Shown: positions 30,805 to 47,591, counted from the stretch's first letter. The stretch: DNA of 64,000 nucleotides from Bacteroidota bacterium (GCA_020444275.1 JAHLLG010000002.1:1-64000); one strand, 5' to 3'. Numbers and translations are program-made. Notes: generated by a model not told the origin, from the letters alone.

Positions 30805-31518
30805 TTACAATCCTAAAAACTGAATACTAGCACCACATAAAAAGATGGTGGCTCCGGCAATAGCATGCATAAATCGTTCAACATTAACTTTTGGCAGAAA
30901 TTTAAAACCAAGATATGAGCTGGTTACAATTAGCATCATAGTTCCGACGGTTACCACACTGAAAATAATCGTAACCATAACCATTGCCAAAATATTATTT
31001 TGCGCAGCGGGATAAAGTAAAATCGGAATAAAAGGTTCACAAGGACCAAAAATAAAAATGGTAAATAAGATCCAGGGAGTTAATTCTTTAATGCTTCTCT
31101 TATCATGTATATGCGAATGTTCTTTAATGTGTGCGTGTTTATGCACGTGAATAGTACCATCATGGTGCACATGTTTATGGGTATGTTCTTTTTGCTTATA
31201 GGCTTTTCTCATTCCCCAAATAAAATAGACCAAACCAAAAGCAATCATTAACCAGGCAGCTACAGAACCCCGGGTAGCTTCAATTGGTGTAAGTTGGTTA
31301 ACAGCAATTCCTAGTAAAATTCCAATAAACCCAATCATAACAGAGGAGCCTACATGACCTATTCCACAGATCAACGTAATTAGATTTGTTTTCAGTAAAG
31401 ACCACTTGCGGGCTTTCGAAATAACAATAAAGGGTAAATAATGATCAGGCCCCAAAAGAGTATGGAAAAACCCTATTGAGGCAGCTGTCAGGTAAAGAAC
31501 ACTTGAATCTATTTGCAT
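30805..31518 (-). CDS. TauE/SafE- or UreH-like permease with His-rich loop (probable Ni2+ transport)
   Basis: A 237-residue membrane protein with about six helices. The first helix carries the HxxxxxPDHYLPF pattern (FFHTLLGPDHYLPFIV) typical of the NiCoT/UreH/RcnA group. A cytoplasmic or periplasmic loop around residues 113-143 is extremely rich in histidine (THKHVHHDG, HVHKHAHIKEHSHIH). It is the last gene of the [NiFe] hydrogenase cluster, 49 nt after a zinc-ribbon gene. Nickel uptake or sequestration for the hydrogenase is the natural guess. The superfamily also includes efflux pumps and sulfite exporters, so direction and substrate are not settled. Confidence 0.75.
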   Translation of the reverse strand: MQIDSSVLYLTAASIGFFHTLLGPDHYLPFIVISKARKWSLLKTNLITLICGIGHVGSSVMIGFIGILLGIAVNQLTPIEATRGSVAAWLMIAFGLVYFIWGMRKAYKQKEHTHKHVHHDGTIHVHKHAHIKEHSHIHDKRSIKELTPWILFTIFIFGPCEPFIPILLYPAAQNNILAMVMVTIIFSVVTVGTMMLIVTSSYLGFKFLPKVNVERFMHAIAGATIFLCGASIQFLGL

Positions 31519-31567
31519 TACAACTTTTTTAATTTCAAATTACAAAAAACAATTGTATTTTGAAATA

Positions 31568-31975
31568 CTATAGATATTTTTTATCTTCTTCAGGAACATC
31601 AAAATATTGTTTGTACCGGATCGCATCAGGGCCTATTTGCTCAATACTTTTATCACTTATTTTATAGGTGCATTTTTCACCTGCTAAACTTGAAAAATAA
31701 ACTTCAAATTCTTCATCGCCATCTTTTAAATAAATTTTTACCAAGTTTGGGTTTTCTTCTCTGTTAAGTGTTGCATGGCAAATAGGGCAGTAGAAGGTAT
31801 ATTCTTCTCCTTCGTGAATTTCAAAGGTTGGATGAGTAGTTATAGAGTAGTCACCTATTTCAGAGTTTAGAAAAATTAAACCCTTTTCATTCTTTGCCGA
31901 TTTTGCCGACAACAAAATGGAGTTCTTAACTCTCAATTGTCCTTTGCAGATCGGACAGTAATAATCTTTTGCCAT
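31568..31975 (-). CDS. zinc-ribbon protein of unknown function
   Basis: A 135-residue soluble protein with two CxxC pairs, YYCPICKG at residues 5-12 and FYCPICHA near residue 61, which probably hold one zinc or iron. No catalytic motif was recognised. It lies between the hydrogenase protease and the permease in the minus-strand [NiFe] cluster, 12 nt after the protease stop. The position suggests a role in assembly or metal delivery for the hydrogenase, but nothing in the sequence proves it. Confidence 0.7.
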   Translation of the reverse strand: MAKDYYCPICKGQLRVKNSILLSAKSAKNEKGLIFLNSEIGDYSITTHPTFEIHEGEEYTFYCPICHATLNREENPNLVKIYLKDGDEEFEVYFSSLAGEKCTYKISDKSIEQIGPDAIRYKQYFDVPEEDKKYL

Positions 31976-31987
31976 AGTGTTTGGGTT

Positions 31988-32434
31988 TTAATGGTTTGTA
32001 ATTTCTAATATTTCGTGTACAGCGTTTAATACAGTTTCTGATAATTCTTCTCCAAAGTCGATACTTTTGGGCTGAATCCCCAAAATATACACCGGCATTT
32101 TAAATAACTCTGATATTCGTTTTAATGAAATATTGTGTGTATTTAGCGTATAATCTTTAAGTTCATTGGCAGGAATTAAATTATAATATCCCGGTTTCTT
32201 GCCAAAATCTACACAATCAATAAGAATAAGAACATCAGGATTTATAGCATTAATTTTACCGATATAATTTTCTATACTTACTTCAACAGTTAATTTTTGA
32301 ATGGTTGATTTTTCTTTTATTCTGTTACTGATGAACACACCAACACCATCATCACTTTTTAATACATTACCAATTCCTACAAATAGTATTTTTTGGTCTG
32401 TTTTATTGATTAAAAAGTCTAACGTTAAAGTCAC
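31988..32434 (-). CDS. [NiFe] hydrogenase maturation protease (HycI/HyaD family)
   Basis: A 148-residue endopeptidase that clips the C-terminal tail of the large subunit once nickel is in place. The family motif FVGIGNVLKSDDGVGVF (residues 19-35) contains one metal-binding acidic residue; IDCVDFGKKPG near residue 73 supplies the second, and a His lies in NTHNISL near residue 101. Its start overlaps the ferredoxin gene by 4 nt, so the two are translationally coupled. The likely substrate is the large subunit at 38869, which has a 33-residue tail after the last Cys-x-x-Cys motif. Confidence 0.9.
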   Translation of the reverse strand: MTLTLDFLINKTDQKILFVGIGNVLKSDDGVGVFISNRIKEKSTIQKLTVEVSIENYIGKINAINPDVLILIDCVDFGKKPGYYNLIPANELKDYTLNTHNISLKRISELFKMPVYILGIQPKSIDFGEELSETVLNAVHEILEITNH

Positions 32435-33045
32435 TCAAAGGTATATTTAATTAAAACTTCTCTTAAACAGTTGGGACAAAGAACATTAAACATGTCTTTT
32501 CGTTTCAGGCCATCTTTAATATTCGATTCAGAACTTTGTTTCGATGCCAAACGGAGTTTTTCATTTAATATATTTAGGTTCTGAATGGAAGCAAAAGCTT
32601 TTGGTCCCAGCTTCTTGTGCATATATACCAGATGATCTTTAGTAGTAATCACTGCATTGCAATTTTTACAAATAATGAGTTCTCTTTCTTGGTATTCAAT
32701 AGCCTGGCTTCGGTCAAAATTAGCAATGTCAAATATTTTATCTGACAATTTAACTCCCTTTTGTGTTATGCAATGTTCTTGACACTGTCCACAGAAAATG
32801 CATTTTCCATAATCTCGTTTAATTGTCCGAATACCTTTTTCTTTATCATCTTCGAATGTTATAGCATGCGATGGACAAACATTGGAACACGTTTCGCAAC
32901 CCACACAATTCTTCTCATCTACCTCGGGTTTCCCTCTAAAATTCTCGAACGGAACATGTGGTTCCTTTGGGAACTTTGTTGTGTAAGCCGGAGTAAACAG
33001 TGATACTAAAGCTTCTTTTACTTCTCGTATTTTTGGATATTTCAT
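32431..33045 (-). CDS. NuoI/MbhN-like 2x[4Fe-4S] ferredoxin subunit with CxxC tail
   Basis: A 204-residue electron-transfer subunit. Two 4Fe-4S motifs are CVGCETCSNVCP near residue 46 and CIFCGQCQEHC near residue 82. A C-terminal extension adds two CxxC pairs (ICKNCNAV near residue 125, LCPNCLRE near residue 189), a tail also seen in formate hydrogenlyase-type HycF/HyfH subunits. It is expected to wire the [NiFe] small subunit to soluble donors at the cytoplasmic face. It starts 15 nt after the MrpG gene and overlaps the protease gene. Confidence 0.88.
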   Translation of the reverse strand: MKYPKIREVKEALVSLFTPAYTTKFPKEPHVPFENFRGKPEVDEKNCVGCETCSNVCPSHAITFEDDKEKGIRTIKRDYGKCIFCGQCQEHCITQKGVKLSDKIFDIANFDRSQAIEYQERELIICKNCNAVITTKDHLVYMHKKLGPKAFASIQNLNILNEKLRLASKQSSESNIKDGLKRKDMFNVLCPNCLREVLIKYTFE

Positions 33046-33059
33046 TTTAGATCAGACTT

Positions 33060-33386
33060 TTAACTTTTATGAACGTCTTTGTAATCATCCTTAACGCTTT
33101 TGTCTCCTAATTTTATTCCAAATATGTATGCACCTTTTACCAATGCATGAGCAGCAACGGTGGCTGCAAAGAATAATATTGGAATAGCAACTATAGCTTT
33201 TATTCCGCCATTAGTAAATCCATAATAAAATACAACGCCAATTAATATGCTGCAAGTGCCTAAGGTCACACACTTGGTAGCTGATTGCAAACGGTTGTAT
33301 ACATCTGGTAATCGGATTAATCCAATACATCCAAAGAGATTAAACAATATTCCAATACAGATAAATATAAATCCTATAATTTCCAT
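33060..33386 (-). CDS. mrpG: Mrp antiporter subunit G
   Basis: A 108-residue membrane protein with three helices. The family motif LFGCIGLIRLPDVYNRLQSATKCVTLG is visible, shown here by its core GLIRLPDVYNRLQSA. An upstream in-frame start at 33410 would overlap mrpF by 23 nt; the ATG at 33386, one nt after the mrpF stop, is preferred. It belongs to the membrane Mrp module of the [NiFe] cluster. Confidence 0.9.
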   Translation of the reverse strand: MEIIGFIFICIGILFNLFGCIGLIRLPDVYNRLQSATKCVTLGTCSILIGVVFYYGFTNGGIKAIVAIPILFFAATVAAHALVKGAYIFGIKLGDKSVKDDYKDVHKS

Positions 33387-33387
33387 T

Positions 33388-33654
33388 TTATTCGTTGAGT
33401 TTTTTACCACTTAAATATTTAGCCAATGTTAAGGTGCCTATAAAACTTAAAATTATCCATGCTATTCCGATGTCTAGAATATATGATCTTTTGGTAATAA
33501 TGGATAAGATCGCACAAATTCCAACAACAAGAATCCCGAAAATATCTATTCCTACCATTCTATCGGCAATGGATGGCCCCCGTATAATCCTGAATAGGCA
33601 GAATACGCATAGTGCAATTTGCACATAAAGCAAGATGTTAAGATAATCGATCAT
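33388..33654 (-). CDS. mrpF: Mrp antiporter subunit F
   Basis: An 88-residue protein with three helices and the family core RIIRGPSIADRMVGIDI near residue 23. It overlaps mrpE by 4 nt (ATGA type), which indicates coupled translation. In Mrp-type and Mbh-type complexes this subunit sits with E and G at the distal end of the ion-translocating module. Confidence 0.92.
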   Translation of the reverse strand: MIDYLNILLYVQIALCVFCLFRIIRGPSIADRMVGIDIFGILVVGICAILSIITKRSYILDIGIAWIILSFIGTLTLAKYLSGKKLNE

Positions 33655-34142
33655 TCGAATATTTTTTTTATATATTTTTCAAATCTGCCAGCTATTTTTT
33701 GACTGTACTCTTCAACATTATCTGTCGAAATATAAATCCAATGCACATATATTTCGTCACCAACAATATCAACAGATATGGTTCCCGGTGTCATCGTAAT
33801 TGAGTTTGCCAAGATAGTTTTAGCGATATTGGTTTTTAATCCCAATTTAACTTTTACTATTCCCGGTTTAATTGGCATTGCCGGATGCAATACTCTGTAC
33901 GCAACATCAAAGTTGGCTTTTATACATTCCCAGGTGAAAATGAACAGGTAAATGATTAACCAGTAATATCGTTGGATCTGTAAAAAGGGTCTTACGTGTT
34001 TAAGAAAGTATTTCCCGAAAACAAAAGATGTAACCAAAGCTGCTGCAATGCCAACGACAATATTTGATATACTGAAACTAAAGGTTAGCAGAATCCAGAA
34101 TATGAATGATAATATAAATATAGCAATGTATTTCATCATCAA
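33651..34142 (-). CDS. mrpE: Mrp antiporter subunit E
   Basis: A 163-residue protein with two or three N-terminal helices and a soluble C-terminal domain of the MnhE family (ANFDVAYRVLHPAMPIKPGIV, here shortened to its core VAYRVLHP and IKPGIV, then NSITMTPGTISVDI). It overlaps mrpD upstream and mrpF downstream by 4 nt each. Equivalent to MbhA of archaeal membrane-bound hydrogenase. Confidence 0.92.
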   Translation of the reverse strand: MMMKYIAIFILSFIFWILLTFSFSISNIVVGIAAALVTSFVFGKYFLKHVRPFLQIQRYYWLIIYLFIFTWECIKANFDVAYRVLHPAMPIKPGIVKVKLGLKTNIAKTILANSITMTPGTISVDIVGDEIYVHWIYISTDNVEEYSQKIAGRFEKYIKKIFE

Positions 34143-35677
34143 ATACCTATTATAGTTTGTACATATTGATTCGGATTTGTTAAAACATCAATGGCCGGAC
34201 CTAGAATCTGTTCACGAATTCCGGGGAAAGCCAAAAGACTAAAAGCAAGACATAAGATTCCCATAACAATCATACTAAAGAGCATTGGGAATGGAACTTC
34301 CTTAATTTTTGATGTTGAACGATGTTCTGATTTATTATAAAATGCATAACGCTGAAACTTAAGAAATGATGCAAGTGTTATGACGCTTACAAAAACAGCT
34401 AAAAATGCCACCAAATAGAATTTTGCCTGAACGGCTGCAATAATTATGATTAGTTTGCTAAAAAATCCATTGAAAGGAGGAATTCCGGAAATAGCCATGG
34501 ATGCAATAAATGATGTTCCGGATGTTACGGGCATATGTTTGCTTAAGCCTCCCATTTCTTTTAAGTTCCTGGTATTAATTCGGTGTTCTATGGCTCCGGC
34601 ATTTAAAAAGAGCAATCCTTTAAATACAGCATGATTAACCATGTGAAACAATCCTCCGGCTATAGCTAAGGTTGCTACAGTTGGTTTAACTCCGCGGGCT
34701 AATAATACCAAGCCTATACCAATACTTAGTACAACATACCCCATCTGACTAATACTATGGTATGCTAAAAGTCTCTTGATATCCCACTGCCCAATAGCTA
34801 AAAGAACTCCGATAACCATTGATATTGTTCCTAGTGTTGTGATGAGTAGTGAGATCTCTTCAGAAACTATAAACATAGTAAAGAACAAACGTATAATTAC
34901 ATAAATACCGACAGCTTTAATAAGAACTCCTGACAGCATTGCAGAAATTGGCGATGGTGCTGAGGAGTGCGCATCTGGCAACCACGCATGGAATGGCATC
35001 ATGGCTGCTTTTAAACCAAAACCTGAAATCAATAGAATTTGAATAAACAGATCAAATGTACTGGTTTCGTGAGAGTGGAAAAGCGCTGATATATCTGCAA
35101 TATTAAGGGTTTTAGTTCTCCAGTAAATTAATCCAATAGCAAAAAGAATGATAAATGATGCAATTCCTCCCAATACCTGATATTTGAAAGATGCTTCCAG
35201 TTCTTCTTTTTCTGTTCCAAATGCTACTAATGCATAGGATGAAATCACTGAAATTTCAAGGAAAACGAATAGATTAAATAAATCGCCACTTAAAACCACA
35301 CCACTCATTCCGGTTATCATTAAACAGAGTAACGAATAGAAGTTATTTTCCGAAGTAAATTTTGCAATATAAGAGATTGAATATACCGATGCCAGAAATC
35401 CTATTAAACTAATAATACAAAGTAGAATTAACGAAAATCCATCCATTACAAAGTAAATTGCAATAGGAATATTATCGATAGGTTCCCAACCGCCAATGGC
35501 ATAAGTGTATGAATTCGAGTGATTATTCAATAAGCAATAGAAACTTAATACTGTTAGGAAAAGAAGAACTAATGGCGTAATTGTTTTTTGAAATCCATTA
35601 ATAAATTTCCCCAGAATCATTATGAGAAATGATGTTGCTAAAGGTACTATAACAAATAATGGTATTAATGAATTCAT
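34139..35677 (-). CDS. mrpD: Mrp antiporter subunit D (proton-conducting NuoM/N-like)
   Basis: A 512-residue antiporter-like subunit with about 14 helices. Hallmarks are the helix-5 glutamate in LFVFLEISVISSY, the helix-7 region GFGLKAAMMPFHAWLPDAHS with its lysine, LLAYHSISQMGYV, and MVNHAVFKGLLFLNAG. All key ion-path residues appear present, unlike in the 623-residue paralogue at 36997. Equivalent to MbhH/MrpD. It sits 3 nt after mrpC. Confidence 0.95.
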   Translation of the reverse strand: MNSLIPLFVIVPLATSFLIMILGKFINGFQKTITPLVLLFLTVLSFYCLLNNHSNSYTYAIGGWEPIDNIPIAIYFVMDGFSLILLCIISLIGFLASVYSISYIAKFTSENNFYSLLCLMITGMSGVVLSGDLFNLFVFLEISVISSYALVAFGTEKEELEASFKYQVLGGIASFIILFAIGLIYWRTKTLNIADISALFHSHETSTFDLFIQILLISGFGLKAAMMPFHAWLPDAHSSAPSPISAMLSGVLIKAVGIYVIIRLFFTMFIVSEEISLLITTLGTISMVIGVLLAIGQWDIKRLLAYHSISQMGYVVLSIGIGLVLLARGVKPTVATLAIAGGLFHMVNHAVFKGLLFLNAGAIEHRINTRNLKEMGGLSKHMPVTSGTSFIASMAISGIPPFNGFFSKLIIIIAAVQAKFYLVAFLAVFVSVITLASFLKFQRYAFYNKSEHRSTSKIKEVPFPMLFSMIVMGILCLAFSLLAFPGIREQILGPAIDVLTNPNQYVQTIIGI

Positions 35678-35680
35678 TTT

Positions 35681-36019
35681 TTAACCTCTTAAATTATTAA
35701 TTTCTCTAATGTCGAATGTTTTATATTTTCGGTAAAGCCTAATTGCAATGGCAAGTAGCATTGCTGTTGTTGCCAATCCAATTACTATTGCTGTTAAAAC
35801 CATTGCCTGTGGAAGAGGATCAACATAAATAACATTTTGATTACTTAGCTCAACAATAGGAGCCACACCTGCATCGATGTAGCCTATAATTACAAGGAAC
35901 AGAAACACACTAAATTCCATGATAGATAAAGAAATCACAATCTTAATCAGGTTCCTTCGTGTAATCAGACCATAAAGTCCAACCAGAAATAATATAAAAC
36001 ATAGAATATATACAATCAT
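35681..36019 (-). CDS. mrpC: Mrp antiporter subunit C (NuoK-like)
   Basis: A 112-residue protein with three helices, a NuoK homologue. The helix-2 region IKIVISLSIMEFSVFLF contains a membrane glutamate, and DPLPQAMVLTAIVIGLATTA is the typical helix-3 block. It overlaps mrpB by 4 nt. Equivalent to MbhG. Confidence 0.93.
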   Translation of the reverse strand: MIVYILCFILFLVGLYGLITRRNLIKIVISLSIMEFSVFLFLVIIGYIDAGVAPIVELSNQNVIYVDPLPQAMVLTAIVIGLATTAMLLAIAIRLYRKYKTFDIREINNLRG

Positions 36020-36453
36020 TTTTTTACCTCTTCTTTAAAAATAACTAATGCAAGAAATATGGTAATAATAGCTGCTGCCACTTCTATTCCAATGAAAATA
36101 TTATACAGTGGAATGGCACCGGCACTTATAATTTCTCCCAACTGACCTTTAGGTAAATAGTTTGCAAAGAATATCTTTGAACCTATGAATAGAGCAAAAA
36201 CAGCCAGCATTAGAACAATAAATATTGCCAGACTTTCAGATAATGAAGATCCTTGCTCTTTGTTTTTAAGGTTCATCGCATCTGAACCAAAGGCAAGAAT
36301 GTTTAAGATATAAGCTCCTGCAATTATGGCACCGCCGGCAAATCCTCCTCCCGGAGTTAAATGCCCGTGTGTTATGATATAAATACCATAAAGGAATATT
36401 AATCCTGATATTAATTGCGCTACTTTTTTTACTATGATCGACATTCCTTTCAT
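36016..36453 (-). CDS. mrpB: Mrp antiporter subunit B
   Basis: A 145-residue MnhB-domain protein with four helices. The family hallmark YIITHGHLTPGGGFAGGAI is near residue 24. Equivalent to MbhF. It starts 5 nt after the DUF4040 gene and overlaps mrpC by 4 nt. Confidence 0.93.
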   Translation of the reverse strand: MKGMSIIVKKVAQLISGLIFLYGIYIITHGHLTPGGGFAGGAIIAGAYILNILAFGSDAMNLKNKEQGSSLSESLAIFIVLMLAVFALFIGSKIFFANYLPKGQLGEIISAGAIPLYNIFIGIEVAAAIITIFLALVIFKEEVKK

Positions 36454-36458
36454 ATTGC

Positions 36459-36986
36459 TTACTTTTTGCCTTTAATTCTTAAAACGGTTAAAACACCCAG
36501 GGCAGCAGCAAATAAAATGGTTGCTTCTCCCAGTGTATCATATCCTCTGAAATCAAATAATATACCTGTAACTAAGTTAATACTGCCCGTTTTTTCAGCT
36601 GCTTGATCAACATAAGCTTCAGCCATTCTTAGGGTGTGGTCTCCAAATAGATTGAGTTCGGCGGTGGCTTGAACAAAGAAAAACAAGAGAACTGCAGCAA
36701 AAATAATAGACAAGACAATGTTAGAATACGATTTAAAATCAGGTTTAACTTTTAATTCTTCTCGTGTACTGTCTAAAACAACTGCAACCATTATAATTAA
36801 AGTAATCGTCTCAATTACTATTTGAACAATTGCCAAATCGGGAGCTTTAAGTAATAAGAAGGCTATTACCAAACTGTAGCCGACAATTCCTGTTGTAATA
36901 ACAGCTGAGAGTAAATCTTTTGCGTGTATGGCGAATATCGCACCAAGAATCATAAATCCAATCAATATAGAAAGCGTTAATTCCAT
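36459..36986 (-). CDS. MrpA C-terminal/DUF4040 subunit (MbhD-MbhE fusion type)
   Basis: A 175-residue membrane protein. The first 80 or so residues match MbhD/DUF4040 (ITTGIVGYSLVIAFLLLKAP then DLAIVQIVIETITL). The second half matches MbhE or the MrpA C-terminus (GSINLVTGILFDFRGYDTLG then EATILFAAALGVLTV). In Pyrococcus these are two genes and in true MrpA they are the tail of one large protein, so the arrangement here is intermediate. The membrane glutamates expected in the ion path (IETIT and DTLGEA) are present. Confidence 0.88.
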   Translation of the reverse strand: MELTLSILIGFMILGAIFAIHAKDLLSAVITTGIVGYSLVIAFLLLKAPDLAIVQIVIETITLIIMVAVVLDSTREELKVKPDFKSYSNIVLSIIFAAVLLFFFVQATAELNLFGDHTLRMAEAYVDQAAEKTGSINLVTGILFDFRGYDTLGEATILFAAALGVLTVLRIKGKK

Positions 36987-36996
36987 TGTTTCGCTT

Positions 36997-38868: not shown

Positions 38869-40059
38869 TTATTTATTTTTTAGTTTGCTTGTTTTTTCAG
38901 CAGATAAAGCAATGAGTTCGTTACCATTCAAAATCCTTTCTCCTGTTTTCCAGTCGTATGCTACTGCCATTCTTTCCGTACAACAATAACATGGATCAAC
39001 AGCCGCTAAAGAAATGGTTGCATCGGAAATTGTCTGGCCAATGCATGATTTCTTAAAGGTTGCAATATTGGTATAACTTGGAGCACGGATCTTATGACGT
39101 GCAGGAGAGTTAGAGCCATCGGTTAATACATAATGGAACACCTCACCACGAGGAGCCTCGGCATGTCCTGTTCCCCAACCGGCTGCAATATTTTTAACTT
39201 TAACTTCTATTTCTCCTTCCTTTTCTTTCTTTAATCCTTCCAGGCATTGCTCAATAATTGAGATAGATTCGTACATCTCTAGCAAACGGACTTCTGCTTT
39301 TGCAAACACATCGCCTTTTTCGGCTGTAATCACTTTCCAGTTTACCAATGGATATGCAGCATATGGATCGTCTTTACGAACATCAATAGCAACGCCGGAA
39401 GCCCTTGCTGTAGGTCCAACCGCTGCATAATCAATGATATCTTGTTTGGTTAAGATTCCAACTCCTTTGGTTCGTGCATGGATAACTGGATCGTCCATTA
39501 CTGCACCAACAAGTAGGTCATTCTTCTTCTTAAATTTATCAAGCGTTTCTTTAATCTTAGGTATTTTGTTATTTTCAATATCTCTTCTAACGCCACCCAC
39601 TTTGAACATGGCATAACTATTTCTATTACCAGATATCATTTCGAATAAGTCCAAAATAGGTTCGCGATATTTCCATGCCCACATAAATACGGTATTATAT
39701 CCTAAAAAATGGCCTGCTAATCCAACCCATAATAAATGACTATGAATTCTTTCTAGTTCTCCAACAATACTTCGAATATATTTTGCCCGGTTGGTAATTT
39801 CAATATTTCCAGCTTCTTCAACTGCATTAGCAAAGGCAAAAGGATGCGAAGTAGAACAAATTCCACATACACGCTCTACCAGGAAGAATGATTGATCGAA
39901 CGTTTTTTTCTCACTTAATTGCTCAATACCACGATGATTATACCCTGTTTCCCACTTAATATCCTTTACGATTTCTCCTTCGCAATACAGTTTAAACAAT
40001 TCAGGTTCTTCCTGAAGCGGATGATATGGTCCAATTGGTATGAGTGTTTTTTTAACCAT
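38869..40059 (-). CDS. group 4 [NiFe] hydrogenase large (catalytic) subunit
   Basis: A 396-residue NuoD-like subunit with both nickel-iron ligand pairs: RVCGICSTSH (Cys65, Cys68) and DPCYCCTER (Cys357, Cys360). It is therefore a hydrogenase and not a Cys-less complex I or Mbs homologue. A 33-residue tail follows CTER, a likely target of the protease at 31988. The EchE/HycE/MbhL style ending and the membrane partners place it in group 4. It interacts with the NuoB-like small subunit and sits on the NuoH-like anchor. The reaction is H2 evolution or oxidation coupled to ion transport; direction cannot be read from sequence. Confidence 0.94.
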   Translation of the reverse strand: MVKKTLIPIGPYHPLQEEPELFKLYCEGEIVKDIKWETGYNHRGIEQLSEKKTFDQSFFLVERVCGICSTSHPFAFANAVEEAGNIEITNRAKYIRSIVGELERIHSHLLWVGLAGHFLGYNTVFMWAWKYREPILDLFEMISGNRNSYAMFKVGGVRRDIENNKIPKIKETLDKFKKKNDLLVGAVMDDPVIHARTKGVGILTKQDIIDYAAVGPTARASGVAIDVRKDDPYAAYPLVNWKVITAEKGDVFAKAEVRLLEMYESISIIEQCLEGLKKEKEGEIEVKVKNIAAGWGTGHAEAPRGEVFHYVLTDGSNSPARHKIRAPSYTNIATFKKSCIGQTISDATISLAAVDPCYCCTERMAVAYDWKTGERILNGNELIALSAEKTSKLKNK

Positions 40060-40070
40060 TTTTAATCTTT

Positions 40071-40508
40071 TTACTTGAATTCTCTTCTGTAAGGATAAAC
40101 TCCTTCGGCCCAGTTACCTTCCGATATTAATTTTTCAGGCTCAGGGTGATTTTTAAATACGATACCATATAATTCGTGCATTTCGCGTTCAATCCAGTTG
40201 GTAGCCGAAAACATATTCGATAATGATTCGATTTCGGGTTTTTCAACAGGAAGCACAACATGTAAATTGACAATGGATCCTATGCTATCTTTCGTAAAAT
40301 GATATAAAATTTCAAATCCTTTTCGGGTATGATTAGCAGTTGCTATAATAAATCGTAACTCAAGATCTTTATAAACATACTCGGCAACAGGTAAAATAGA
40401 TTCGGGTTTAATGGTAATGATGGCTCTTGTTTCCGATTTTTTGAAAACATCCAGTACATCAGCACTAAATTTATTTTTTACACTATTTAAAATATCATCG
40501 GTATTCAT
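40071..40508 (-). CDS. NuoC-like hydrogenase subunit
   Basis: A 145-residue protein of the 30 kDa complex I subunit family (MbhK/EchD-like). The family signature NWIEREMHELYGIVFKNHP is near residue 101. It is a structural subunit next to the catalytic subunit and has no cofactor of its own. It lies 11 nt before the large-subunit gene. Confidence 0.92.
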   Translation of the reverse strand: MNTDDILNSVKNKFSADVLDVFKKSETRAIITIKPESILPVAEYVYKDLELRFIIATANHTRKGFEILYHFTKDSIGSIVNLHVVLPVEKPEIESLSNMFSATNWIEREMHELYGIVFKNHPEPEKLISEGNWAEGVYPYRREFK

Positions 40509-40521
40509 ACTCGAATATGTT

Positions 40522-40932
40522 TTACTTGTTTAAAAGTTTTACAATTCCTGCTAAGATAGCTTCTGGTTTTGGTGGGCAACCCGGGATATAAGCATCTACC
40601 GGAATGATTTTATCAACTGGTCCGGCAAATGTATTTCCTTCTGCAAAGATTCCTCCTGTACAACCACAAGCACCAATAGCTACGACTAAAATTGGTTTAG
40701 GAGCTTGTTCGTAAAGCTCTAATAATCTGCTTTTGTCTCTTTGGTTGATAGATCCATTTACAAGCAATACATCGGCATGACGAATACTTCCCACGAGTAA
40801 CATTCCAAAACGTTCAACATCGTATCGTGGTGTTAAACAATCGAGAATTTCAATATCGCAATTGTTACACGATGCACCACCGAAATGGAACAACCACAAA
40901 GACTTTTTAAAACAGAATTCTTTAAATCCCAC
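40522..40932 (-). CDS. NuoB-like [NiFe] hydrogenase small subunit
   Basis: The electron-transfer small subunit with one proximal 4Fe-4S cluster. Ligand motifs are SCNNCDIEILDCLTPRYD near the N-terminus, AIGACGCTGGIF and GCPPKPEAI. No ATG is available: an in-frame TTG at 40977 would overlap the NuoH-like gene by 32 nt, while the GTG at 40932 begins 14 nt after its stop and leaves a normal-length leader before KSLWLFHFGG. The GTG (about 136 residues) is preferred with moderate certainty. Confidence 0.9.
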   Translation of the reverse strand: MGFKEFCFKKSLWLFHFGGASCNNCDIEILDCLTPRYDVERFGMLLVGSIRHADVLLVNGSINQRDKSRLLELYEQAPKPILVVAIGACGCTGGIFAEGNTFAGPVDKIIPVDAYIPGCPPKPEAILAGIVKLLNK

Positions 40933-40945
40933 GTTTTTTAAATTT

Positions 40946-41878
40946 TTATAATCCAAAATATGATAGCACAATTGCAATGATAGCTAACAGATTCATCCAA
41001 ACCAGGAAGTACCTGATAGCTTGTTTAATTTTTACTCTCGGATTAGTGTTCCTGATAAGTGTCAGCAAGAGCACTACAAATAATATTTTTAATATCGACC
41101 AGAGTATGTTGATTCCTTCAAAATTTAATCCTCCCCAAAGCAATCCTATTAAGAATGCCGGAAGGATAAAAAACATAATATATTTTGCCATCTTAATCAT
41201 GGCATAGGGTGTTCCCGAATATTCAATCATAATTCCTTCTGAGATTTCAGTTTCAGCTTCGGGCATATCGAAAGGAACCAATGCAAGCTTTGCTTGTATA
41301 CAGAAAATAAATACGATAAATAATAATATGCCAGAAATGCTACCTGCAAAGGCTCCATTGATAGTTTGTAAAGAGATTATTTCGTTAAAACTTATCGTCA
41401 TTCCTGCTTTTTGTATTATACCAGCAAGAACCAATAAGAATGTTAATTCATAACTTAAAATTAATTTCATTTCGCGAGAGCCACCAACTGCTGCGAGCGG
41501 ATTACCCGATGCCAAAGCTCCAATTATATATGTTAAAGATGGAATAGTTAACAAATAAAATATAACAATGATATCGCCTTTAAATCCGGTTTCAATTCCA
41601 AGTAATGGCAGTAAAATAAATACTCCTGCTATAGATGCCCCAAATACGGCAAATACTGGTGCTGCAAGAAATACACCTTTTGATCCGTGTTTTGGTAAAA
41701 TAGTTTCTTTTACTAAAAGCAATTTTAAAAAATCATAAAATGGCTGGAACAATGGTGGTCCTTTTCTAAATTGAACCCAGGCAGTAATTTTTCTATCATA
41801 CCATGATAAAAGCCCTCCAACTATTGCTGCAAATAATAGTCCTGGAAAAATTAAAAAGTAAAATAATTGTTCTGCCAT
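40946..41878 (-). CDS. NuoH-like membrane anchor subunit
   Basis: A 310-residue membrane protein with eight helices, homologous to NuoH/MbhM/EchB. Hallmarks are YDRKITAWVQFRKGPPLFQP near residue 27, SYELTFLLVLAG near residue 140, and the loop FDMPEAETEISEGIMIEYSG near residue 203. It anchors the hydrogenase peripheral arm and links it to the antiporter subunits. It lies 6 nt after the ferredoxin-like gene. Confidence 0.94.
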   Translation of the reverse strand: MAEQLFYFLIFPGLLFAAIVGGLLSWYDRKITAWVQFRKGPPLFQPFYDFLKLLLVKETILPKHGSKGVFLAAPVFAVFGASIAGVFILLPLLGIETGFKGDIIVIFYLLTIPSLTYIIGALASGNPLAAVGGSREMKLILSYELTFLLVLAGIIQKAGMTISFNEIISLQTINGAFAGSISGILLFIVFIFCIQAKLALVPFDMPEAETEISEGIMIEYSGTPYAMIKMAKYIMFFILPAFLIGLLWGGLNFEGINILWSILKILFVVLLLTLIRNTNPRVKIKQAIRYFLVWMNLLAIIAIVLSYFGL

Positions 41879-41884
41879 GATATA

Positions 41885-42382
41885 TTATGATTTATCAGTA
41901 CTCCAATTTTTTTCTTTAACTAAAATTTTATCATTCAATTTATAAATATCTTTTTCTGGATCTTCATCCATTTTAACTAGTTCTACAGACCCAATAGGAC
42001 AGGCTTTTATAAATTCTTTTATTTCGTGATCATTGGATAAATCAAAGTACAAATCCTTTTTACGATGATGATCAAAAAAATCACTCATCATAGTCCCGAA
42101 CGGACAAATGGTAACACATGATTTACAGGAGATACATAAATTGATATGTCGTTCAATCATTCCATCATCATTTTTTTCCAAAGCTTCAGTAGGACATACA
42201 TTGATACAAGGAGCATCTTCGCAACGCCGGCATGTAAAACTAAAAACTGCTAACTCCCGAATCGATTTTAGTCCGTTCGTTGTTGTTAAATGACTAAAAA
42301 ATCCCTCCGGAGGAGTTATGTCGCAGCTTTTGTTGCCACAATCTCTGAATTTACTCAAATCTATTAATAGCTTTTTGTCCAT
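41885..42382 (-). CDS. 4Fe-4S electron-transfer protein (HycB/CooF-like)
   Basis: A 165-residue ferredoxin-type protein with several cysteine groups: CGNKSC near residue 15, FTCRRCEDAPCINVCP near residue 50, LCISCKSCVTICP near residue 82 and CPIGSVEL near residue 131. The layout suits three or four 4Fe-4S clusters, as in HycB, HydN or CooF. It lies between the diaphorase genes and the membrane hydrogenase genes (3 and 6 nt gaps), so it is a good candidate for the wire between the two modules. Confidence 0.85.
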   Translation of the reverse strand: MDKKLLIDLSKFRDCGNKSCDITPPEGFFSHLTTTNGLKSIRELAVFSFTCRRCEDAPCINVCPTEALEKNDDGMIERHINLCISCKSCVTICPFGTMMSDFFDHHRKKDLYFDLSNDHEIKEFIKACPIGSVELVKMDEDPEKDIYKLNDKILVKEKNWSTDKS

Positions 42383-42385
42383 ATC

Positions 42386-43210
42386 TTAACTCCAGATATC
42401 TGGTTGATCTTTAATTTCATCATAAGTAAAAACAGGCCCTTCTTTACAAACAAAGTATTTACCCATCATACAGTGTCCGCATTTTCCTAATCCGCACGAC
42501 ATATTTTTTTCCATCGACAGGTAAATGTCGTGATCAGGATATCCCATTTCTAATAATTTTTGGGTTCCGAACTTCATCATAATTGGAGGACCACAACATA
42601 CAGCTATCGAGTCCTTAATATTTATGTTGATTTTATCTAACAAAACGGTTGCAACACCTACATTTTCCGTCCAGGTTTCATCAGGATCATCAACTGTTCT
42701 ATGTACTTCAAATTTCGGTGTGTTTCTTAGTTGGTCTACATATGGCCTGTAAATACATTCATCAGGCGTTTTTGCTCCGTAACACAATGTAACTTTTTTG
42801 AGTTTGTCGGATATGGCTGCTAAATTGTAGAGCAGCGATCGTATAGGTGCAAAACCACATCCTCCGCCAAGAATTAAAACCTCTTTATCGTAGAATCTTT
42901 CAACCGGATATCCACGTCCGAATGGACCACGAATTCCCAGTGTTTCACCGGCTTTCATGTTATGAAGATATTCGGTTACATATCCGGTTTTCATTACGGT
43001 AACTTCAATTTGTTTCGTTTCAAGAGGTGATGATGAAGGAGTAAAAGGTGCTTCTCCAATTCCGTCAACTGTTAATTCAATAAATTCGCCGGTTTTGAAC
43101 GAGAACGCTTCTTCGGGTTCCATTACAAAAGTTTTGATTGTGGGAGATTCTGTGATCACTTCCAACAATTTTGCCCTGATTGGCTTGTATATGTTTTTCG
43201 TTTCTGACAT
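42386..43210 (-). CDS. FAD/NAD(P)-binding sulfhydrogenase gamma-like subunit
   Basis: A 274-residue ferredoxin-reductase-fold protein. It has an FAD-binding segment (GEAPFTPSSSP and LGIRGPFGRGYPV), a nucleotide-binding loop (VLILGGGCGFAPIRSLLYNL), a C-terminal NAD(P) motif (CCGPPIMM near residue 205) and a [2Fe-2S] motif (SCGLGKCGHCMMGKYFVCKEG, core CGLGKCGHC). This is the gamma subunit of cytosolic sulfhydrogenases and is also close to AsrB and dihydroorotate dehydrogenase PyrK. Here it is fused by gene order to a membrane group 4 hydrogenase. It probably oxidises or reduces NAD(P)H. Confidence 0.88.
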   Translation of the reverse strand: MSETKNIYKPIRAKLLEVITESPTIKTFVMEPEEAFSFKTGEFIELTVDGIGEAPFTPSSSPLETKQIEVTVMKTGYVTEYLHNMKAGETLGIRGPFGRGYPVERFYDKEVLILGGGCGFAPIRSLLYNLAAISDKLKKVTLCYGAKTPDECIYRPYVDQLRNTPKFEVHRTVDDPDETWTENVGVATVLLDKININIKDSIAVCCGPPIMMKFGTQKLLEMGYPDHDIYLSMEKNMSCGLGKCGHCMMGKYFVCKEGPVFTYDEIKDQPDIWS

Positions 43211-43214
43211 TATA

Positions 43215-44216
43215 TTAATTAGCTACCTCCCTGAATAATTCATTTTTATTGATTTTACCAATACAAGCTTCTATGCATCTTCCACAACCGGTGCAAGCCA
43301 GAGATTTAAATTTCTGTGGTTTCCAAACATATTTACAGAAATAGCGGTTCTGAAATCTTCGGGGTAATGCACCCAATGCATCTTCTCCACCTGCAACACG
43401 CTCAAATCCGGGATATTGACAAGCATCTAATTGACGAACCTTTTCAAAATTGGGTTTATCAACCAGTAAAAAACAGGTACACGTTGGGCAAATGGTTGCA
43501 CAGGCACCACATGATACGCAGGTTGATGAATACTTTTTCCATATCTCATCGCTGGCTTTTTCAACAATTTTGCCTGTTTTTTTATAATCTGGTAATCCCG
43601 GATTGTCGGCTATGATTTGGTTCTCTATTTTACTTTGCTTTAGTTCAATATCCTTTATTTCAGATTCAGGAGAATTAGATATAGCAGTTTTATCCTTTAA
43701 CTGCTGAATAAAATATTCTCCCTTATCAGATAACACTTCTAAATGGACCTTTTGATCAACACGCGACAACGAGATATCGGCTATGGTTTTTGCATATGGA
43801 TTAATACCATAAATCATGCAGTGACAATGTTCCTGCGTTTCAAAACACGATGAGGATATTAGGATTGTCTTATCTCGTTTAGTTTTATACGCGTGATCAA
43901 TATAATCTTTGTCCAGATAAATTTCGTCGAGAATTCCTAAGCCTTGAATATCGCAATTCGGCGTTCCTATAATTATTCGCTTACTGTTTAATTTTCCCTG
44001 GGATGTTAAGTTTTCTTTAACAGGTAAGAAGAAAGTTTTAAGTGGAGTTGTAGGTTTAGGTATATTATAAATAATTTCCGGGATATGCTCTGTATCTATG
44101 AATTCATAGTCAATAGAATCACTATTCTCTATTGGAGCATAAATGCTATAATCTTCTAAAAGCTGTGCGATAGCCTTTTCCCAATCAGAGATTAATAATG
44201 AATAATAATTTTTCAT
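43215..44216 (-). CDS. sulfhydrogenase beta-like 4Fe-4S subunit
   Basis: An iron-sulfur protein of about 333 residues from the SH-beta/AsrA family. The C-terminal part holds CVSCGACATICPTCTC (about residue 230) and CTGCGRCIEACIGK (about residue 308); the N-terminal part has the family segments GTPNCDIQGLGILDEIY and SSSCFETQEHCHC. A GTG at 44234 is the longest start, but the ATG at 44216 (MKNYYSLLISDWEKA) fits the family better and leaves the Rex-like dyad at 44220-44235 outside the gene. It is the first gene of the 19-gene minus-strand [NiFe] cluster. No asrC or group 3 hydrogenase subunit is present. Confidence 0.87.
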   Translation of the reverse strand: MKNYYSLLISDWEKAIAQLLEDYSIYAPIENSDSIDYEFIDTEHIPEIIYNIPKPTTPLKTFFLPVKENLTSQGKLNSKRIIIGTPNCDIQGLGILDEIYLDKDYIDHAYKTKRDKTILISSSCFETQEHCHCMIYGINPYAKTIADISLSRVDQKVHLEVLSDKGEYFIQQLKDKTAISNSPESEIKDIELKQSKIENQIIADNPGLPDYKKTGKIVEKASDEIWKKYSSTCVSCGACATICPTCTCFLLVDKPNFEKVRQLDACQYPGFERVAGGEDALGALPRRFQNRYFCKYVWKPQKFKSLACTGCGRCIEACIGKINKNELFREVAN

Positions 44217-44219
44217 ATC

Positions 44220-44235
44220 TGTGACATCATTCACA
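44220..44235. promoter_or_regulatory. Rex-like operator 3 ([NiFe] cluster / rex intergenic)
   Basis: TGTGAC-ATCA-TTCACA is a dyad that fits the Rex consensus TGTGAA-N4-TTCACA with one mismatch. It lies 3 nt upstream of the preferred start of the first [NiFe]-cluster gene and in the region divergent from rex. It also fits TGTGA-N6-TCACA, the CRP pattern. Confidence 0.55.
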
Positions 44236-44407
44236 TATAAAATTACCCGGTCGAAAAATCAAAAGTCAAGTATTTTGTCAAAAAAATGCTATAAAACATA
44301 TTAACAATACACATAACTATCTGAAAATAAAATAAAAAAGAATATATTTTTTATTTCAAAAAAACTTGTATAACTTGCTTAAAATAGCATTAGTCGAATT
44401 TTTTATT

Positions 44408-45040
44408 GTGAAATACATCACAAAACATATTATTCGAAACGATCTTAAAAGATTATTTACTTATCGTTTATGTCTGATTGGATTTAAACGAAAAGGATTT
44501 GATCGGTTATACTCTTATACATTAGGTGAAGAGGCCGGTGTAAGCGCAGACCAGGTGCGAAAAGATTTCTCAAATTATAAAATAAAAGGCAATAAAAAAG
44601 GAGGCTACAAGATTGATGATCTCTTACGGTCAATAGATGATGTGATCAAACATCAGGATGAACAGTATATGATTTTGGTTGGAATGGGAAATATTGGAAG
44701 AGCATTGGTTCAATACAAAACGTTTAAACTACGAAAAATGATCATTGTTGCCTCTTTCGATATTGATCCGTCGAAGCAGTCCAAACGATTTGGTGTTCCG
44801 GTTCTTCCGTTGGAGATGTTGGAAGATATCATAAAAAAGTTTCATGTTCACGTTGCAATTCTTGCTGTACCGGCTATTTCTGCTCAAGATGTAGCAAATC
44901 GTTTAATCGATTTAGGCATCAAGGGAATTTTGAATTTTGCGCCGGTTATTCTTAAAGCTCCGGAAGATGTTATTGTAAATAATATTAATATCGGAGATGA
45001 GCTGGAGAGTGTGATTTATTACACTCAAAAGGTTATGTGA
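44408..45040 (+). CDS. rex: redox-sensing transcriptional repressor Rex
   Basis: A repressor of about 211 residues that binds DNA when NADH is low and leaves it when NADH rises. The winged-helix recognition segment is LGEEAGVSADQVRKDFSNY (about residues 39-57), and the Rossmann NAD(H) motif is VGMGNIGRALVQY near residue 95. The GTG at 44408 is preferred as start; a TTG at 44366 would add 14 residues of atypical sequence. It is divergent from the [NiFe]-diaphorase cluster and upstream of hypF. Five matching dyads in the island suggest it controls both [FeFe] operons and the [NiFe] cluster. Confidence 0.93.
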   Translation: MKYITKHIIRNDLKRLFTYRLCLIGFKRKGFDRLYSYTLGEEAGVSADQVRKDFSNYKIKGNKKGGYKIDDLLRSIDDVIKHQDEQYMILVGMGNIGRALVQYKTFKLRKMIIVASFDIDPSKQSKRFGVPVLPLEMLEDIIKKFHVHVAILAVPAISAQDVANRLIDLGIKGILNFAPVILKAPEDVIVNNINIGDELESVIYYTQKVM

Positions 45041-47311: not shown

Positions 47312-47312
47312 T

Positions 47313-47525
47313 ATGTGTTTAAGTATTCCCGGAAAGGTTATAGAAATTAAAGGTGATACAGCAGACGTATCTGTTGGTGGAACCATTGTAAAAGTAGGTA
47401 TGCAAATGGTCGATCGTGTGAAAGAAGGCGATTTTGTATTAGTGCATGCTGGTTTTGCTTTGCAAAAGATTAACGAAAAAGAAGCACTCGAAACTTTAAA
47501 ATTATTTCGAGAAATGAATGAATAA
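47313..47525 (+). CDS. hypC: hydrogenase chaperone HypC
   Basis: A 70-residue HypC/HupF chaperone that carries the Fe(CN)2CO unit to the large subunit. It starts with the invariant MCLSIPGKV, whose Cys2 is functional, and has the usual GDFVLVHAGFALQKI near residue 40. It follows hypF by 1 nt. Confidence 0.96.
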   Translation: MCLSIPGKVIEIKGDTADVSVGGTIVKVGMQMVDRVKEGDFVLVHAGFALQKINEKEALETLKLFREMNE

Positions 47526-47567
47526 TTAAGGTTTAGTTGGCTTTTAAGGAGCATTGGTGAAGTTTAT

Positions 47568-47588
47568 AACAAGTAACAAGTAACAAAT
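47568..47588 (+). repeat. three 7-bp repeats before hypD
   Basis: AACAAGT, AACAAGT, AACAAAT run head to tail and end 3 nt before the hypD ATG. This is the same 7-bp period as the arrays before hypA and hypB. Confidence 0.7.
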
Positions 47589-47591
47589 TTC

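What the first reader, a model, noticed from the sequence alone, without database searches (positions are those of the whole stretch)
30805..44234. Hybrid cluster: sulfhydrogenase diaphorase + group 4 [NiFe] hydrogenase + complete Mrp antiporter
One minus-strand run encodes SH beta-like and gamma-like subunits, a HycB-like wire, NuoH/B/C/D-like hydrogenase subunits with intact NiFe ligands, a NuoL-like subunit, MrpA-tail, MrpB-G, a NuoI-like ferredoxin, a protease, a zinc-ribbon protein and a probable nickel permease. From family knowledge, SH beta/gamma belong with cytosolic group 3b enzymes and Mrp genes with Mbh. Here they are consecutive, with gaps of 0-20 nt and many 4-nt overlaps. The inference is a membrane NAD(P)H:H+ oxidoreductase that uses or builds an ion gradient. 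NADH to H2 is uphill at standard conditions, so reverse ion flow could drive it, or H2 oxidation could make NADH and a gradient.
Basis: partly seen in the sequence, partly recalled or inferred. Interest (0 to 1): 0.9.

Follow-up and report, generated by a model that had tools for sequence, protein, structure and literature searches.

The report
Probable NADH-fed, ion-pumping membrane hydrogenase
A run of sixteen genes, kept together in many groups of mostly uncultured bacteria, appears to encode one membrane machine that joins an NADH-oxidising unit, a hydrogen-making unit and an ion pump, whereas hydrogenases of this kind have been assumed to run on ferredoxin.

Summary
One minus-strand operon encodes SH-beta/AsrA-like and SH-gamma/AsrB-like diaphorase subunits, a HycB/CooF-like ferredoxin, a group 4 [NiFe] hydrogenase with intact ligands, antiporter subunits covering all Mrp parts, a HycF-type ferredoxin and a protease. 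It is a conserved family: of 86 related loci 70 reach far enough upstream, and 69 have SH-beta/gamma beside the hydrogenase. All 46 loci with 9 kb downstream have the full arm; two shorter loci do not. A sister group 4 enzyme from another phylum lacks the diaphorase, the HycB-like protein and the HycF-type dock in nine loci. A Rex (NADH sensor) gene lies divergently upstream; 56 of 57 Rex-type palindromes in 1.37 Mb of loci lie in front of this operon. Best explanation: a reversible, ion-translocating NADH:H+ oxidoreductase, probably ion-driven H2 evolution. Cofactor, direction and complex formation are untested. Similar parts were reported once, as enigmatic, in one Saganbacteria genome (PMC6349859); HydDB's 4g entry reads 'Ferredoxin-coupled (putative)'. 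New variant of a known kind.

The parts
43215..44216 (-). SH-beta/AsrA-like Fe-S electron-transfer subunit (start corrected from GTG 44234 to ATG 44216)
   Evidence: NCBIfam ShyB E 2e-40, AsrA 1e-35, HydB 5e-35, all below cut-offs; PDB best 9nez_B P. furiosus SHI beta E 2.5e-27; single copy in own genome at E 1e-5
42386..43210 (-). SH-gamma/AsrB-like FAD/NAD(P)-binding diaphorase subunit with 2Fe-2S ligands
   Evidence: Pfam NAD_binding_1, FAD_binding_6, DHODB_Fe-S_bind; PDB best 9nez_C SHI gamma E 8.7e-48; 74 rows of this family are one side of a branch against six references, SH-aLRT 98
41885..42382 (-). HycB/CooF-like ferredoxin
   Evidence: Fer4 families; PDB hits 6cz7_B, HDCR HycB3/HycB4, FHL HycB; eight Cys conserved 78/78
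40946..41878 (-). NuoH-like membrane anchor
   Evidence: Pfam NADHdh E 8e-62
40522..40977 (-). NuoB-like small subunit, proximal 4Fe-4S (true start probably downstream of the listed TTG)
   Evidence: Pfam Oxidored_q6 E 3e-32; cluster Cys 75/78
40071..40508 (-). NuoC-like subunit
   Evidence: Pfam Complex1_30kDa E 2e-22
38869..40059 (-). group 4 [NiFe] hydrogenase large subunit
   Evidence: PDB best 6cfw_L MBH E 3e-82, then 7z0s_E FHL HycE E 4e-75; four NiFe Cys 85/85; only PF00374 match in own genome
36997..38868 (-). NuoL/MrpA-N-like antiporter subunit
   Evidence: Pfam Proton_antipo_M E 3e-60; PDB best 6cfw_H MbhH, then MrpA 7qru_A
36459..36986 (-). fused MbhD-MbhE (MrpA C-terminal part)
   Evidence: Pfam MbhD and MbhE
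36016..36453 (-). MrpB-like
   Evidence: Pfam MnhB
35681..36019 (-). MrpC/NuoK-like
   Evidence: Pfam Oxidored_q2
34139..35677 (-). MrpD-like second antiporter subunit
   Evidence: Pfam Proton_antipo_M E 2e-69; NCBIfam cation/H+ antiporter subunit D models, below cut-off
33651..34142 (-). MrpE-like
   Evidence: Pfam MNHE E 9e-44
33388..33654 (-). MrpF-like
   Evidence: Pfam MrpF_PhaF
33060..33410 (-). MrpG-like
   Evidence: Pfam PhaG_MnhG_YufB
32431..33045 (-). NuoI/HycF-like ferredoxin with a C-terminal cysteine quartet of HycF type
   Evidence: PDB best 7z0s_F FHL HycF; two late CxxC in 54 of 57 relatives, the other three cut by contig ends, and 0 of 9 in the sister family
31988..32434 (-). 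HycI-type hydrogenase maturation protease
   Evidence: Pfam HycI; NCBIfam hydrog_prot above cut-off
31568..31975 (-). two-CxxC (zinc-ribbon-like) protein, role unknown, seen only in Bacteroidota loci
30805..31518 (-). His-rich membrane protein, possible metal transporter (unconfirmed)
   Evidence: only DsbD_2 below cut-off
44220..44235 (.). Rex-like operator TGTGA-N6-TCACA at the operon start
   Evidence: two in window, 0.05 expected; conserved in relatives
44407..44422 (.). second Rex-like operator, next to rex; lies inside the ORF as listed, so the rex start is probably downstream of it
44366..45040 (+). Rex-type NADH/NAD+-sensing repressor, divergent (listed TTG start uncertain)
   Evidence: Pfam Put_DNA-bind_N and CoA_binding; translation
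45092..50852 (+). [NiFe] maturation genes hypF, hypD, hypE, hypA, hypB
   Evidence: Pfam

Best explanation
The operon encodes one membrane complex of the complex I superfamily whose electron input is an SH-beta/gamma diaphorase. NADH is oxidised at the FAD of the SH-gamma-like subunit. Electrons pass through its 2Fe-2S cluster, the clusters of the SH-beta-like subunit, the HycB/CooF-like ferredoxin (docked on the cysteine-quartet extension of the HycF-like subunit), the HycF-like clusters and the NuoB-like proximal cluster to the [NiFe] site, where protons become H2. The NuoH-like anchor couples this to an arm with two antiporter-like subunits plus MrpB, C, E, F and G. Because NADH is a weak donor for H2, I think the usual direction is H2 evolution from NADH helped by inward ion flow when NADH builds up; it would run backwards (H2 to NADH) at high H2. 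Shown: genes, ligands, linkage, operator sequences. Inferred: one physical complex, NADH rather than NADPH, direction, coupling ion, Rex binding.
For: SH-beta and SH-gamma within 6.5 kb upstream in 69 of 70 loci with at least 4.3 kb upstream, HycB/CooF-like in 70 of 70; the exception L103 has SH-beta/gamma about 8.7 kb upstream. All nine arm and ferredoxin genes in 46 of 46 loci with at least 9 kb downstream. Where NuoI has moved next to the large subunit the diaphorase is still there (L172-L174). The sister group 4 family (about 44% identity) shows no SH-beta, SH-gamma or CooF of its own in nine loci (L169 is cut 0.6 kb upstream of its large subunit), and its NuoI-like subunits lack the HycF-type quartet (0 of 9, against 54 of 57 here with the other three truncated). 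In E. coli FHL the HycF extension carries such a quartet and contacts HycB (PMC9474812, passages). Diaphorase-type large subunits are one side of a branch, 68 of 68 rows used, SH-aLRT 99. Own genome: one SH-beta copy, one PF00374 match, AsrC best 40.1 bits against a cut-off of 324.1; in 22 of 30 other genomes of the clade this large subunit is the only PF00374 match. Cluster Cys nearly invariant. An aspartate in 72 of 73 SH-gamma where P. furiosus SHI gamma has none. Rex gene and operators.
Against: No biochemistry. Rex does not prove NADH as substrate: C. bescii Rex also represses its Ech hydrogenase operon (PMC6391272, passages). 29 of 69 loci with readable upstream DNA have no exact operator, and TGTGA-N6-TCACA is also a CRP-type core (recalled). 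The aspartate is equally present in two bacterial group 3b gamma proteins, so it does not settle NADH against NADPH. The HycF-like subunit might also take ferredoxin. Linkage is not perfect: L115 has no SH-gamma in the 125 bases before its CooF, where the contig ends; L122 has a TPR gene between CooF and NuoH and lacks MrpB, E, F and G in its 5.7 kb downstream; L165 shows no arm gene but NuoI in 4.6 kb downstream. Distances of NuoB follow the large subunit poorly (r 0.49; SH-gamma 0.89, SH-beta 0.84, CooF 0.81, MrpD 0.80), unexplained.
Confidence: 0.7

Rival explanations
1. Ferredoxin remains the main donor, as assumed for 4g: reduced ferredoxin enters at the HycF-like or HycB-like subunit, and the SH-beta/gamma module is a side exit or second entry, making a ferredoxin/NAD/H2 junction or even a confurcating membrane enzyme.
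For: HydDB calls 4g 'Ferredoxin-coupled (putative)' (PMC5037454, passages); two ferredoxin-like subunits are present; Rex also controls Ech in C. bescii (PMC6391272; Ech being ferredoxin-dependent is recalled).
Against: SH-gamma is the only flavoprotein that Pfam recognises in the operon, so there is no obvious bifurcating flavin. The sister family keeps a NuoI-like subunit without diaphorase or HycF-type quartet, suggesting that the dock here serves the diaphorase branch.
Confidence: 0.17
2. The same complex, but working mainly in the other direction: H2 oxidation reduces NAD+ and exports ions, conserving energy.
For: H2 at high pressure is a stronger reductant than NADH (textbook potentials, recalled); group 3b enzymes with the same diaphorase type are reversible (PMC5037454 table).
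Against: Rex is described as repressing NADH-oxidising genes at low NADH/NAD+ (PMC5317091, passages), so Rex-type control favours NADH disposal. Two antiporter-like subunits would need a larger drop than H2 to NAD+ normally gives (inference).
Confidence: 0.25
3. The diaphorase is NADPH-specific, as stated for group 3b hydrogenases.
For: Closest solved relative is P. furiosus SHI gamma; HydDB lists 3b as NADP-coupled.
Against: The aspartate after the fourth strand (72 of 73) is shared with two AsrB proteins (NADH-linked, recalled) and missing from SHI gamma, but two bacterial 3b proteins have it too; Rex senses NADH/NAD+.
Confidence: 0.15
4. SH-beta/gamma are a separate soluble reductase (AsrAB-like sulfite or sulfur reductase) that only shares the operon.
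For: AsrA/AsrB models score nearly as well as, or better than, SH models.
Against: No AsrC above cut-off in the genome; linkage across phyla persists through gene rearrangement; the HycB-like protein and HycF quartet track with it.
Confidence: 0.05

Closest known systems
Unnamed group 4 [NiFe] cluster of Saganbacteria RX5A (PMC6349859, passages)
   Same: group 4 hydrogenase, Mrp subunits, cooF, asrA, asrB; nearest relatives given as Zixibacteria and Omnitrophica, phyla that hold loci of this clade
   Different: also has a molybdopterin oxidoreductase, absent from the window operon; reported for one genome as enigmatic, donor unknown, hypothesised Mbh-like
HydDB [NiFe] group 4g (passages in PMC5037454, PMC8542988, PMC11257099; section in PMC7886697)
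   Same: Cloacimonadota and Omnitrophota Mrp-linked hydrogenases carry this label in PMC8542988, and those phyla hold loci of this clade
   Different: 4g is a loose, uncharacterised mixture presumed ferredoxin-dependent; the passages read name no diaphorase for it; I could not run HydDB
P. furiosus Mbh (6cfw), group 4d
   Same: hydrogenase core and Mrp-type arm; best PDB match of the large subunit and the NuoL-like subunit
   Different: takes ferredoxin; no diaphorase; one antiporter-like subunit MbhH (recalled) against two here
E. coli formate hydrogenlyase FHL (7z0s), group 4a
   Same: HycB-like plus HycF-like dock with cysteine quartet
   Different: input is formate dehydrogenase FdhF; no Mrp arm
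P. furiosus sulfhydrogenase I (9nez), group 3b
   Same: beta/gamma electron-input subunits
   Different: soluble, other catalytic subunits, NADP-coupled, no pump (HydDB table, and recall)
Respiratory complex I
   Same: shared NuoB, C, D, H, I, L-type core; NADH input to an ion-pumping arm
   Different: NuoEFG diaphorase and quinone site, against SH-beta/gamma and an intact [NiFe] site

Membership tests
group 4 [NiFe] hydrogenase | both CxxC Ni-Fe ligand motifs in the large subunit | tested here: met
   C65/C68 and C357/C360, 85 of 85
group 4 [NiFe] hydrogenase | NuoB-, NuoC-, NuoH-, NuoI-like core plus antiporter-like subunit | tested here: met
   relatives
group 4 [NiFe] hydrogenase | H2 activity | not testable with these tools
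   no biochemistry
HydDB group 4g | HydDB classifier assignment | not tested
   tool not available; 4g label seen only for other genomes of the same phyla
group 4d Mbh (ferredoxin-coupled, Mrp-linked) | Mrp-type arm | tested here: met
   46 of 46 loci with 9 kb downstream; reduced or missing in L122 and L165
group 4d Mbh (ferredoxin-coupled, Mrp-linked) | no dedicated oxidoreductase module, ferredoxin as sole donor | tested here: not met
   SH-beta/gamma present here and in 69 of 70 loci, HycB-like in 70 of 70; use of ferredoxin itself untested
group 4d Mbh (ferredoxin-coupled, Mrp-linked) | large subunit groups with Mbh | tested here: inconclusive
   6cfw_L falls outside the 68-row clade but is a long branch
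group 3b sulfhydrogenase | 3b catalytic (alpha/delta) subunits | tested here: not met
   only PF00374 match in the genome is the group 4 subunit
group 3b sulfhydrogenase | beta/gamma electron-input subunits | tested here: met
   ShyB, ShyC, HydB, HydG models match below cut-off
formate hydrogenlyase (4a) | HycF-type C-terminal quartet and HycB-like subunit | tested here: met
   54 of 57, rest truncated; 70 of 70
formate hydrogenlyase (4a) | formate dehydrogenase in the cluster | tested here: not met
   none in the window operon; no recurring FdhA-sized gene directly upstream in the loci listed; the one large one tested by Pfam (L082) is not FdhA
AsrABC sulfite reductase | AsrC siroheme subunit | tested here: not met
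   best own-genome score 40.1 vs cut-off 324.1
complex I | NuoEFG input and lost Ni ligands | tested here: not met
   NiFe ligands intact; no NuoE/F/G in the operon
Rex regulon | operator TTGTGAANNNNTTCACAA-type at the promoter | tested here: met
   core TGTGA-N6-TCACA; consensus from PMC5317091 and PMC6391272
Rex regulon | NADH-sensitive Rex binding | not testable with these tools
   needs gel-shift

The most novel reading that the evidence does not exclude
This is an NADH-coupled class of group 4 [NiFe] hydrogenase: a complex-I-like machine that gained its NADH module independently of NuoEFG by docking an SH-beta/gamma pair on an FHL-type HycB/HycF relay, and that uses ion flow to make H2 from NADH without ferredoxin. 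It would be a main NADH outlet, often under Rex control, in Omnitrophota, Cloacimonadota, Elusimicrobiota and a set of Bacteroidales, organisms whose 4g enzymes are now presumed to run on ferredoxin.
Probability: 0.55. Interest if true: 0.82.

Novelty: new variant of a known kind. Interest (0 to 1): 0.72.

Why it matters
In the HydDB passages read (the table is cut off within the 4g row) no group 4 subgroup is NAD(P)H-coupled, and 4g is described as uncharacterised and presumed ferredoxin-driven. If a cross-phylum part of it runs on NADH, the energy budgets drawn for many uncultured fermenters change: they could dispose of NADH as H2 by spending an ion gradient, without needing ferredoxin or a very low H2 pressure. 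It would also be a second, independent way in which the complex I superfamily acquired an NADH entrance, bearing on how complex I was assembled.

Tried and rejected
Considered and rejected: chance neighbours or an assembly artefact (same order in many contigs); SH-beta/gamma serving a group 3b hydrogenase in this genome or AsrABC; a formate-linked complex (no FdhA-like gene in the operon; none recurring upstream); other SH-beta copies in the genome (none at E 1e-5). The NAD/NADP residue test proved weaker than hoped once bacterial 3b and AsrB references were added. The distance comparison gave an unexplained low value for NuoB. Placement of Mbh and FHL in the large-subunit tree is unsure because of long branches. 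Promoter and terminator scans gave counts near those of shuffled sequence. No structure prediction or fold search was run.

Limits. Of 30 genomes with a match, only five diaphorase-type regions were fetched (L165, L171-L174). The 30 genomes were my choice among the 80 loci and most are MAGs, so absences may be due to incompleteness. The tree leaves out 19 Bacteroidales rows that I thinned. Alignments leave out short proteins (used: SH-beta 63 of 73, SH-gamma 73 of 75, CooF 78 of 79, NuoB 78 of 83, NuoI 56 of 57, large subunit 85 of 86). Papers: passages only for PMC6349859, PMC8542988, PMC6305446, PMC11257099, PMC11287216, PMC5317091, PMC6391272, PMC5037454 and PMC9474812; section 8 and passages for PMC7886697. 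Statements on what is in print rest on the searches in an open-access library; supplements were not readable.

Full report
What is there. The minus-strand run 30805-44216 holds nineteen genes. In transcription order: SH-beta/AsrA-like, SH-gamma/AsrB-like, HycB/CooF-like ferredoxin, NuoH, NuoB, NuoC, [NiFe] large subunit, NuoL/MrpA-N-like, fused MbhD-MbhE, MrpB, C, D, E, F, G, NuoI/HycF-like, HycI protease, a two-CxxC protein and a His-rich membrane protein (Pfam; NCBIfam). The last is not confirmed as a nickel permease. The window lies in a 4.22-Mb genome in ten contigs; its nearest named relatives are Bacteroidales metagenome-assembled genomes.

Surroundings. Divergently upstream sits a Rex-type NADH-sensing repressor, followed by hypF, hypD, hypE, hypA and hypB. 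Two [FeFe] HydABC-like sets lie on either side, and a sensory-type [FeFe] protein on one. The genome also has RnfC (593.8 bits), so probably an Rnf complex.

Is it a family? In the relatives search 49 of 59 genomes had some match to the large subunit; 17 genomes besides the window's own matched at 77-94% identity over their best place, the other matches being distant. In a phylum sample 2 of 395 genomes matched at E 1e-70, one being the window's own, so it is rare in the phylum at large. With six loci added from genome searches I had 86 with distinct large subunits at 55% identity or more.

Linkage. Of the 86, 70 have at least 4.3 kb upstream: SH-beta and SH-gamma lie within 6.5 kb in 69, HycB/CooF-like in 70; the exception, L103, has SH-beta/gamma about 8.7 kb upstream. 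The other 16 end too early to be counted: four show all three genes, two SH-gamma and CooF, three CooF only, seven none because their upstream ends within 2.2 kb. Of these, L115 has no SH-gamma in the 125 bases before CooF, where the contig ends, and may be a true exception. Of 46 loci with at least 9 kb downstream all 46 have NuoL, MbhDE, MrpB-G and NuoI; HycI is found in 37. Among the 40 shorter ones two depart: L122 (Margulisiibacteriota) has NuoL, an MbhD protein, MrpC, MrpD and NuoI but no MrpB, E, F or G in its 5.7 kb, and a TPR gene after CooF; L165 shows NuoI but no arm gene in 4.6 kb. Some Omnitrophota-type loci have NuoI moved next to the large subunit (L172-L174) and still keep the diaphorase.

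Control. In 35 genomes of one other phylum (that of L107, titled Omnitrophota), 30 match at E 1e-70, and several carry another group 4 large subunit at about 44% identity. Nine loci of this second kind were fetched, eight of them from genomes that also have the first kind. Their order is NuoL-NuoL-MrpD-...-NuoB-NuoC-large-NuoH-NuoI, and none shows SH-beta, SH-gamma or CooF of its own; in L165 such genes belong to the neighbouring cluster, and L169 is cut 0.6 kb upstream of its large subunit, the others showing 4.0 to 9.2 kb. Their NuoI-like subunits lack the C-terminal cysteine quartet (0 of 9); in our clade 54 of 57 have it and the other three are cut by contig ends. In E. coli formate hydrogenlyase that quartet sits in the HycF extension that contacts HycB, and the metal site lies near the FdhF interface (PMC9474812, passages). 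So the input branch, diaphorase, HycB-like wire and dock, goes together.

Tree. In a quick maximum-likelihood tree of 92 large subunits (19 Bacteroidales rows thinned out beforehand) the 68 rows of diaphorase-type loci are one side of a branch (SH-aLRT 99), the nine sister rows another (99); Mbh and FHL fall outside but are long branches. SH-gamma of the complex, 74 rows, is likewise one side of a branch against six references from AsrABC, group 3b and an HdrA-associated cluster (98). Distances of SH-gamma and SH-beta follow those of the large subunit (r 0.89 and 0.84), as do CooF (0.81) and MrpD (0.80); NuoB does so poorly (0.49), which I cannot explain.

No group 3b or Asr partner. The genome has one SH-beta copy, one PF00374 hydrogenase and no AsrC above cut-off. 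In 22 of 30 other genomes, chosen by me from the 80 loci, the group 4 large subunit is the only PF00374 match; the other eight have 1 to 4 more.

Electron path. The four NiFe cysteines are conserved in 85 of 85 sequences; eight HycB-like cysteines 78 of 78; twelve NuoI-like ones 54 to 56 of 56; the four NuoB cluster cysteines 75 of 78; SH-gamma 2Fe-2S ligands 72 to 73 of 73; SH-beta cysteines 62 to 63 of 63 except one at 47 (short proteins left out). SH-gamma has an aspartate after the fourth strand in 72 of 73, missing from the P. furiosus SHI gamma. I recall that NADH-specific relatives such as cytochrome b5 reductase use an acid there; but two bacterial group 3b proteins have it too, so this is weak evidence.

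Regulation. TGTGA-N6-TCACA occurs twice in the window, at 44220-44235 and 44407-44422, against 0.05 expected. Over the 86 loci (1,374,850 bases) it occurs 57 times; 56 lie in the windows from 400 bases upstream to 30 downstream of the SH-beta match start (29,604 bases in all), and the 57th lies in front of rex in L108. Of 69 loci with at least 150 bases upstream, 40 have a site and 29 do not. The pattern matches the Rex consensus TTGTGAANNNNTTCACAA quoted in PMC5317091 and PMC6391272. A divergent rex adjoins the operon in 24 of the loci besides the window, and rex lies upstream in the same direction in L096, L097, L099 and L108. This ties the operon to the NADH/NAD+ ratio, but C. bescii Rex also represses its Ech hydrogenase operon, so it does not by itself name the substrate.

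Mechanism and energetics. With textbook potentials (NAD+/NADH -320 mV, H+/H2 -414 mV at 1 bar, about -300 mV at 10 Pa; recalled), NADH to H2 is uphill or level. An arm with two antiporter-like subunits could push it by consuming an ion gradient, or harvest the reverse reaction when H2 is high. Rex-type control favours the NADH-disposal direction. This step is inference.

Known or new. The same parts plus a molybdopterin oxidoreductase were reported in Saganbacteria RX5A, called enigmatic, with unknown donor, and hypothesised to work like Mbh (PMC6349859, passages). Mrp-linked 4g hydrogenases were reported in Cloacimonadota and Omnitrophota, for Cloacimonadota with ferredoxin as donor (PMC8542988, passages). 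HydDB calls 4g ferredoxin-coupled (putative) with undetermined role; PMC7886697 states that none has been characterised; PMC11257099 says presumably ferredoxin-dependent. My ten literature searches showed no paper that, in the listings and passages seen, proposes NAD(P)H input for a group 4 hydrogenase with SH-beta/gamma; the library is open-access only and supplements were not readable.

Verdict. New variant of a known kind.

Noticed in passing
window 24066-27554 and 55330-59434: Two [FeFe] HydABC-like sets (NuoE-, NuoF- and HydA-like genes) flank the [NiFe] operon and hyp genes, making a hydrogen island.
   Followed up: partly
window 51054-54804: A sensory-type [FeFe] hydrogenase protein with DRTGG, PHP and HATPase-domain genes, a likely H2-sensing regulatory cluster.
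   Followed up: no
window 27590-30730: A fused ResB/CcsA-like cytochrome c assembly protein next to a [FeFe] hydrogenase set.
   Followed up: no
L165 9554-15566: In one genome (G493) the diaphorase-type hydrogenase follows directly on the 44% sister hydrogenase, and no Mrp gene is detected in the 4.6 kb left on the stretch; it may share or lack an arm.
   Followed up: partly
L122 1-9619: Margulisiibacteriota variant with a TPR gene between the CooF-like ferredoxin and NuoH and a reduced arm (NuoL, MbhD, MrpC, MrpD, NuoI), followed by a Na+/phosphate cotransporter.
   Followed up: partly
L123, upstream of SH-beta: Zixibacteria contig with a second, distant large-subunit, NuoC-like and NuoI-like set just upstream.
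   Followed up: no
L101 5146-5553 and L111 4823-5278: A NIL-domain ferredoxin just upstream of SH-beta in Omnitrophota, together with hyp genes.
   Followed up: no
L008 (G017): The large-subunit gene has one in-frame TGA, perhaps a sequencing error or a broken copy.
   Followed up: no
window 31568-31975: Conserved small two-CxxC protein after the protease in Bacteroidota loci, function unknown.
   Followed up: no
window 44366-44422: The rex ORF as listed starts at TTG before an operator that lies inside it; the true start is unclear.
   Followed up: partly
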